A program made the position numbers and the translations under genes. Shown here one piece after another: positions 52,708 through 54,158 of a stretch of 64,000 nucleotides of DNA (within the stretch, counting starts at the first letter, position 1; each line of letters begins with the position of its first letter). The DNA is from Acetobacter ascendens (GTDB taxonomy: Bacteria; Pseudomonadota; Alphaproteobacteria; Acetobacterales; Acetobacteraceae). Under the pieces are notes generated by a model that was given only the letters and a program-made list of their open reading frames with translations, was not told where the DNA came from and did not search any database. The stretch is taken from positions 1,411,501 through 1,475,500 of the forward strand of contig NZ_CP015164.1 of the NCBI RefSeq assembly GCF_001766235.1. Reading direction: 5' to 3'.

Positions 52708-52810
52708 TCATATTTACCTTATGAAGACTTAAAGATCCCAACCTTCGGATCGGAGCTATCAGGCTTATGGGATTGCATTTGTTTCCTTAATGTTCTACAA
52801 TTCGTAAGCA

Positions 52811-54028
52811 ATGAAAGTCCAGCGCGCGCATGTTGTAAAACTTTATCCCGACGCGGGGCAGGAAGAATTCCTGCGCCAGATCGGTGGTGCAACACGATTC
52901 CTATGGAATCTTGCTCTGTATCAGCGCCAAATTTGGGGCAGACGACATGAGCTAAACCGGTTCAGTCAGTCGAAAGAACTGACGCAACTACGTGCTGAGG
53001 TAAACTGGATGACGGCTTGCCCTTCCCAAGTTCTACAGCAGGTTCTGAATGACCTAGAAAAGGCCTTTCAGAACTTTTTTGCCCAACGAGCCAGATTCCC
53101 GCAATCCAGAAAGAAAAACAGAGGGGATTCCTTCCGGTTCCCGGATGGAAAAAATACGCTATATGAGCGCCTGACCGGAAAAGGTGGCCGCCTAAAACTT
53201 CCTAAGCTTGGGTGGGTACGCTTTCGAGGTTGGCGGCCATTACCTGGTCAGATCAGGAATGTCACGGTACGCTGTGACGCAGGCCAATGGTTTGCCGCAA
53301 TCCAATATGAATATGAGATTACCGATCCAGCACCACGCACTCTACCCGCTATTGGGATTGATCGCGGCGTTGCTGCTACGGTTGCGATCTCTGGACAAGG
53401 CCGGATCAAAGGCCCAGAAGCATACCGGAAAGCGCTAAAGAGATTACAACGGGCACAACGTATTGTCGCCCGCCGTAAAAATGGTTCGCAAAATCGTCAC
53501 AAGGCTGTACTGCGGGTGGCCCGTCTGCACCGCACGGTGCGCCGGGTCAGAGCGGATTTTCTGCATAAGGTTTCTCATTGGCTTGCCAAAAACCACGGCA
53601 CGCTGGTGTTCGAATATCTGAAAATCCGTAATATGATCAGGTCGGCTGCGGGCAGCCTCGCAGAGTTAGGCCACAACGTCCGGCAGAAAGCCGGACTGAA
53701 CCGCTCCATCCTAGATCAGGGTTGGGGCATGCTCCATACGTTCTGTCGCTATAAAGCTGCGGAACGTGGCGGACAGTGTCTCGACGTTTCCGCAAAGAAC
53801 ACCAGTCGGGAGTGCTGCAAATGCGGGCACATAGCGGTAGAAAATCGGGGTAGTCAGGCACGGTTCTTGTGTGTTCAATGTGGACACACGGAAAATGCCG
53901 ATGACAATGCGTCAGTAGTTATATTGAAACGAGCCGTGGACTGCGGCCTACTGCCTGTGGAGGCGTTGCATTATCTCGCCAATAAAGCAGGAAACACTGT
54001 TGGTCACTTCCCGACCTCATGTCAGTAA
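52811..54028 (+). CDS. tnpB: TnpB-family RNA-guided endonuclease (OrfB transposase)
   Basis: 405 residues. RuvC-like catalytic triad visible: Asp184 in IGIDRGVAAT, Glu268 in LVFEYLKIRNM and Asp364 in ENADDNASVVIL. A zinc ribbon lies at 335-357 (CKCG with its neighbouring Cys, and CVQCG). The N-terminal half (AHVVKLYPDAGQEEFLRQI) is the wedge/OrfB_IS605 domain. TnpB proteins cut DNA next to a TAM using an omega RNA from the element's right end (established). The frame and triad are intact, so the protein could be active. ATG 52811. Confidence 0.92.
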   Translation: MKVQRAHVVKLYPDAGQEEFLRQIGGATRFLWNLALYQRQIWGRRHELNRFSQSKELTQLRAEVNWMTACPSQVLQQVLNDLEKAFQNFFAQRARFPQSRKKNRGDSFRFPDGKNTLYERLTGKGGRLKLPKLGWVRFRGWRPLPGQIRNVTVRCDAGQWFAAIQYEYEITDPAPRTLPAIGIDRGVAATVAISGQGRIKGPEAYRKALKRLQRAQRIVARRKNGSQNRHKAVLRVARLHRTVRRVRADFLHKVSHWLAKNHGTLVFEYLKIRNMIRSAAGSLAELGHNVRQKAGLNRSILDQGWGMLHTFCRYKAAERGGQCLDVSAKNTSRECCKCGHIAVENRGSQARFLCVQCGHTENADDNASVVILKRAVDCGLLPVEALHYLANKAGNTVGHFPTSCQ

Positions 54029-54071
54029 GTGACCAACAAAATCTCCCCCTTTAGGACGGAGAGAAGGTCAA
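54000..54071 (+). ncRNA. Candidate omega-RNA 3' scaffold / right end of the TnpB element
   Basis: Overlaps the last codons of tnpB. A perfect 10-bp stem (54000-54009 with 54027-54036, TTGGTCACTT / AAGTGACCAA) is followed by a TCTCC...GGAGA hairpin (54042-54062) and the conserved-looking AAGGTCAAG end. In known TnpB systems the guide begins right after this point, here from 54072 (GCTCACCAAATATTCGCC). Inference by analogy with IS605 elements. Confidence 0.55.
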
Positions 54072-54158
54072 GCTCACCAAATATTCGCCTAGCGCAAGCT
54101 AATTTAATATGTCACTATCGAAACGGAATAGACGGACATTTAATGGAGTAAAGAGCGC

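What the first reader, a model, noticed from the sequence alone, without database searches (positions are those of the whole stretch)
52718..54071. Intact stand-alone TnpB element with a legible candidate omega-RNA right end
The protein keeps its full RuvC triad (Asp184, Glu268, Asp364) and zinc ribbon, and the sequence after tnpB folds into two hairpins ending in TCAA, as in RNA-guided IS605 elements. The left side has a TTAC site and a hairpin 16 bases inside. If right, the guide would read GCTCACCAAATATTCGCC, and the TAM would be TTAC or TTTAC.
Basis: partly seen in the sequence, partly recalled or inferred. Interest (0 to 1): 0.6.

Follow-up and report, generated by a model that had tools for sequence, protein, structure and literature searches.

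The report
TnpB-only IS605 element, ends confirmed
A 1,354-base mobile element in an Acetobacter-type chromosome carries an intact RNA-guided DNA cutter (TnpB) with its guide-RNA region, and undisturbed copies of the same site in sister species show its ends exactly; it is a well-preserved but ordinary member of a known family.

Summary
Four sister genomes hold the empty site, fixing the element at 52718-54071 (1,354 bp, no target duplication), exactly as proposed. The protein is a full-length TnpB with RuvC triad D184/E268/D364 and zinc ribbon, under purifying selection (dN/dS about 0.1). The omega-RNA claim gains two supports: fourfold codons in the tnpB tail are frozen at the third base across 18 TnpBs, and the right-end hairpin shows compensatory changes in 7 of 8 pairs across 25 elements. 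The RNA body is larger than the two hairpins named; it begins near 53950, inside tnpB. All five members of the close subfamily sit 3' of TTAC or TTAT. The ends match IS608 (TTAC, AAAG, TCAA), but no cognate transposase is in the element or evident in the genome, whose one TnpA belongs to a different element ending in TCAG. Three empty sites match predicted TAM plus 18-nt guide perfectly; the own genome has no such target. Verdict: new member of a known kind (TnpB-only, IS1341-type IS200/IS605 element). RNA expression and cleavage remain untested.

The parts
52718..54071 (+). complete TnpB-only IS200/IS605-type element, 1354 bp
   Evidence: empty sites in four other genomes of the genus
52713..52717 (+). 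TTTAC: insertion-site motif (C_L of IS608 type) and predicted TAM
   Evidence: present in empty sites of G025, G028, G031; TTTTC in G026; TTAY flank in all related insertions
52731..52734 (+). AAAG, same as the IS608 left guide G_L
   Evidence: sequence; IS608 values from PMC5934647; conserved position in relatives
52734..52751 (+). left subterminal hairpin GATCC/GGATC
   Evidence: position shared with the relatives' CCCCG/CGGGG hairpin; not significant alone
52773..52801 (+). possible tnpB promoter TTGCAT-17-TACAAT, 9 nt before the ATG (near-leaderless)
   Evidence: weak by itself, not found by the scan; relatives have TTGACC-18-TATAAT in the same place; inference
52811..54028 (+). tnpB, 405 aa RNA-guided endonuclease, RuvC D184/E268/D364, zinc ribbon C335/C338/C354/C357
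   Evidence: dN/dS 0.10-0.11
53951..53963 (+). conserved omega-RNA block CTGCCTGTGGAGG inside tnpB
   Evidence: third bases of P382 and V383 frozen in 17/17 and 17/18 TnpBs (alignment)
53962..53980 (+). stem A of the predicted omega-RNA (GGCG/CGCC)
   Evidence: a hairpin folds here in all 18 elements compared, with changing sequence
53985..53993 (+). conserved omega-RNA block AAGCAGGAA inside tnpB
   Evidence: third bases of A393 and G394 frozen in 18/18
53998..54038 (+). stem B, 12-bp perfect hairpin holding the tnpB stop codon
   Evidence: z -5.8; hairpin at the same place in relatives
54042..54062 (+). stem C, right subterminal hairpin TCTCC/GGAGA
   Evidence: covariation in 7 of 8 pairs across 25 right ends
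54068..54071 (+). TCAA, right cleavage site C_R
   Evidence: empty-site junction; same in the four closest relatives
54072..54089 (+). predicted guide GCTCACCAAATATTCGCC (host flank, not element)
   Evidence: follows the right end directly; occurs once in the own genome within 3 mismatches; TAM plus guide perfect in G025, G028, G031

Best explanation
This is a TnpB-only (IS1341-type) element of the IS200/IS605 family with IS608-type ends. It was inserted 3' of TTTAC by a Y1 transposase acting in trans (inferred), between a UDP-glucose dehydrogenase gene and the P-II gene. tnpB is transcribed through its 3' end and the transcript is trimmed into an omega-RNA made of roughly 53945-54071 plus 16-20 nt of the flank (inferred from relatives). 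TnpB with that RNA would cut any copy of the locus that lacks the element and keeps TTTAC next to GCTCACCAAATATTCGCC, so that repair from a filled copy restores the element (inferred from ISDra2). Shown here: ends, intact reading frame and catalytic residues, selection on protein and on RNA-level sequence, insertion motif, absence of a TAM-flanked target in the own genome, perfect targets in three sister species. Not shown: transcription, processing, cleavage, transposition.
For: Exact ends from four empty sites. TnpB homology with active-site residues aligned to ISDra2. dN/dS 0.10-0.11. Synonymous freeze of four tail codons: 4 of 4 tail columns against 4 of 57 others at 0.93 or more, Fisher p 1.3e-4. 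Right-end hairpin covariation score 0.520 against shuffled 0.169 (sd 0.029), 0/500, and 0.05-0.14 when slid. Same ends and TTAY flank in four Acetobacter relatives, one with its own empty site CCCTTAC|TCTCCCC. Guide 18-mer unique in the own genome, where it follows GTCAA rather than a TAM.
Against: No RNA or activity data. The right guide G_R reads AAAT here against GAAT in the relatives and IS608, and the left and right hairpins no longer match each other, so TnpA recognition may be weakened. Covariation of the right-end hairpin also serves TnpA, so alone it does not prove an RNA. No cognate TnpA was found in this genome.
Confidence: 0.9

Rival explanations
1. A fresh fossil: the element is intact in sequence but no longer mobile or active here, and has simply not had time to decay.
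For: No transposase in the element; single copy; the only TnpA in the genome is of another type (TCAG right end, different left end). G_R altered. The insertion is absent from the sister genomes, the nearest 93-95% identical over the flanks, so it is young.
Against: The lineage shows dN/dS 0.1 and frozen RNA codons over long divergence (dS above 1.2 against the relatives), so both protein and RNA were used until recently.
Confidence: 0.25
2. The stand-alone TnpB has been taken over for a host role at this locus, such as control of the P-II gene 87 bp downstream.
For: Position and orientation upstream of P-II; no transposase.
Against: Nuclease triad intact, unlike the repressor-type TnpB relatives (own knowledge); present at this site in only one of the five species compared; the guide has no TAM-flanked target in the own genome.
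Confidence: 0.03
3. The right-end structure is only a DNA hairpin for the transposase, or a terminator, and not part of a guide RNA.
For: IS608-type transposases do need this hairpin (PMC5934647); single-sequence folding of it is unremarkable.
Against: Constraint extends into synonymous positions 80-120 bases upstream of the end, where TnpA is not expected to bind; no terminator-like T-run follows the hairpin on the + strand.
Confidence: 0.05

Closest known systems
Acetobacter TnpB-only elements (A. persici pAC1084_1, A. pasteurianus pAP22518-1, A. pomorum LHT 2458 two copies)
   Same: 77-79% protein identity, 1353-1354 bp, same end layout, no tnpA, TTAY left flank
   Different: 74-75% DNA identity; their left and right hairpins are near-identical CCCCG/CGGGG types, here the two have diverged
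IS608 (Helicobacter pylori)
   Same: inserts 3' of TTAC, G_L AAAG, C_R TCAA, target retained in the left flank (PMC5934647)
   Different: carries its own tnpA; G_R GAAT against AAAT here
ISDra2 TnpB and its reRNA
   Same: homologous nuclease over residues 4-376; in ISDra2 the guide comes from the right flank and the RNA overlaps the tnpB 3' end (PMC8612924)
   Different: TAM TTGAT; element has tnpA; sequence distant (E 3e-48)
SfaTnpB
   Same: TTAC TAM shown experimentally, NTAC tolerated (PMC12781874)
   Different: another, shorter TnpB (369 aa); direct comparison not made
TnpA+TnpB element of the same genome (C1:1511766-1513326)
   Same: about 53% identical TnpB, same two omega-RNA sequence blocks
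   Different: has tnpA, right end TCAG, other left end and target

Membership tests
IS200/IS605 family element | inserts 3' of a short motif with no target duplication, subterminal hairpins at both ends | tested here: met
   empty sites; hairpins by comparison with relatives
IS200/IS605 family element | moved by a Y1 transposase (TnpA) | not testable with these tools
   no tnpA in the element; only a different-type TnpA in the genome
IS1341-type (tnpB only) group | tnpB the sole gene | tested here: met
   only ORF of 80 aa or more within the fixed ends
IS608-like ends | C_L TTAC, G_L AAAG, C_R TCAA, G_R GAAT | tested here: inconclusive
   first three met; G_R is AAAT here, GAAT in the relatives
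RNA-guided TnpB nuclease | RuvC D/E/D triad and zinc ribbon | tested here: met
RNA-guided TnpB nuclease | omega-RNA from the tnpB 3' end and right end | tested here: inconclusive
   constraint and covariation fit; no RNA data; no Rfam family matched
RNA-guided TnpB nuclease | TAM-dependent cleavage | not testable with these tools
   needs an assay

The most novel reading that the evidence does not exclude
The stand-alone TnpB maintains and spreads itself without any transposase, by cutting empty alleles of this locus (perfect TAM plus guide in three sister species) and being copied in by repair, a homing-type life.
Probability: 0.1. Interest if true: 0.6.

Novelty: new member of a known kind. 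Interest (0 to 1): 0.27.

Why it matters
It adds a TnpB with exactly mapped ends, a predicted TTAC-type TAM, a predicted guide and ready-made natural targets in sister species. That makes it a clean natural test of whether a TnpB without its own transposase keeps its element in place. It also gives a comparative map of the omega-RNA body inside the tnpB tail for this alphaproteobacterial branch.

Tried and rejected
Rfam scan: two sub-threshold chance matches only. Mobilisation by the genome's own TnpA: set aside because that element and its copies end in TCAG with another left end. Search for the subfamily's right end in 398 genomes sampled across the family: none, so the source of the transposase was not found. 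Exact 46-bp unit in viral contigs: none. Single-sequence folding of the two terminal hairpins: not significant. In alignment A1 the focal hairpin is out of register by one base, so the pair counts understate its pairing; its pairs (TCTCC/GGAGA) were set by hand. Phage and plasmid tblastn gave only more distant TnpBs apart from the two Acetobacter plasmids. No structure was predicted, since the sequence match to solved TnpB covers the whole nuclease.

Full report
Check of the observation. The ORF at 52811-54028 is a 405-aa TnpB with the three expected Pfam domains, the NCBIfam guided_TnpB model at 1.2e-87 and an alignment over residues 4-376 to solved ISDra2 TnpB (8bf8, E 3e-48) that puts D184, E268 and D364 opposite D191, E278 and D361. 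Two CxxC pairs form the zinc ribbon.

Ends. A search of 49 genomes of the genus with the locus found the right flank starting exactly at window 54072 in G028, G025, G031 and G026. Read out, these are uninterrupted sites: ATTTAC|GCTCACCAAATATTCGCC in G025, G028 and G031 and ATTTTC|GCTCATCGAATATTCGCC in G026. The filled site reads CATATTTAC|CTTATGAAG ... GAAGGTCAA|GCTCACC. The junction letters do not overlap, so the element is 52718-54071 without ambiguity and without target duplication. The nearest of these genomes is 93-95% identical over the flanks, while the nearest known copies of the element are 74-75% identical in DNA, so the insertion is a fairly recent arrival from a source not seen here. 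G028 has also lost the neighbouring UDP-glucose dehydrogenase gene.

Relatives. Four close TnpB-only elements (77-79% protein identity) lie in A. pomorum (two), on A. persici pAC1084_1 and on A. pasteurianus pAP22518-1. Each is 1353-1354 bp with the same layout: TTAC or TTAT, 8 bases, a short stretch ending AAAG (AAAA in one), hairpin, tnpB, hairpin, TGTCAA. The A. pasteurianus copy has its own empty site in A. pomorum contig C136 (CCCTTAC|TCTCCCC). For the A. persici copy, G016 keeps CTTAT|AACGGAGGG on the right side but differs on the left, so that case is only consistent. IS608 inserts 3' of TTAC with G_L AAAG, C_R TCAA and G_R GAAT (PMC5934647); the relatives largely match, the focal element has AAAT for G_R.

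RNA-level evidence. In a codon alignment of 18 TnpBs (47-100% identical to the focal one), conserved fourfold codons agree in the third base 61% on average, but P382 CCT (17/17), V383 GTG (17/18), A393 GCA (18/18) and G394 GGA (18/18) are frozen; 4 of 4 tail columns against 4 of 57 others reach 0.93 (Fisher 1.3e-4). These codons belong to two nucleotide blocks, CTGCCTGTGGAGG and AAGCAGGAA, that recur in the set. Between and after them three hairpins recur with changing sequence: stem A in the coding tail, stem B around the stop codon, stem C at the right end. For stem C in 25 right ends, 94.4% of cells pair, 7 of 8 pairs have changes on both sides, and the covariation score is 0.520 against 0.169 shuffled and at most 0.135 slid. 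Stem C is also a transposase site, so the codon evidence carries more weight for an RNA. The protein is under purifying selection (dN/dS 0.10-0.11 with dS 1.3-1.45).

Function. By analogy with ISDra2 (PMC8612924) the RNA would carry 16-20 nt of the right flank as guide. The 18-mer occurs once in the own genome, at the element itself, where no TAM precedes it; TAM plus 18-mer is perfect in three sister species. The predicted complex therefore spares its own chromosome and would cut an empty allele. This is inferred. No cognate transposase was found: the one Y1 transposase of the genome (C1:1512964-1513326) sits in a different TnpA+TnpB element with a TCAG right end and another left end, and the other Y1 hits of the genus are of that kind or remote.

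Verdict. The side finding of 46-bp end-units is described under Noticed in passing; a 52-bp counterpart made by recombination between the two terminal palindromes is already described in Haloquadratum (PMC3119063).

Noticed in passing
L086, L088, L089 (Acetobacter), L093, L096, L097 (Klebsiella plasmids), L094, L095, L098 (E. coli): The two ends of this element type occur fused as units of exactly 46 bp with one hairpin, always 3' of TTAC or TTAT (L093 and L096 are the same site). For L097 an unoccupied site CTTTTTAC|GTTCAG exists in many related Klebsiella plasmids. They are either mobile minimal units or scars left when the core is lost by recombination between the two like hairpins, as for the 52-bp PATE of Haloquadratum (PMC3119063).
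   Followed up: partly
plasmids and E. coli genomes collections: The 42-47 base left-end sequence is roughly 90-98% conserved between Acetobacter and more than 1,000 enterobacterial plasmid records, although the TnpB proteins are only about 40% identical. This suggests one transposase specificity shared in trans.
   Followed up: partly
L005, L094, L098 against other copies: Copies with left guide AAAA all sit at TTAT, copies with AAAG mostly at TTAC, as expected if the guide pairs with the target as in IS608; small numbers.
   Followed up: no
L010:1410-1478; L063, L069, L070: One A. pomorum copy is inserted at a TTTAC that ends a 66-bp repeat, which looks like the left end of a second TnpB family in the genus (G008, G031).
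   Followed up: no
G000:C1:1511766-1513326 (L057): Complete divergent tnpA-tnpB element in the same genome, 46 kb away and outside the window.
   Followed up: partly
G028:C75 near 66600 (L077): The UDP-glucose dehydrogenase gene beside the insertion site is missing in this sister genome, while the site itself remains.
   Followed up: no
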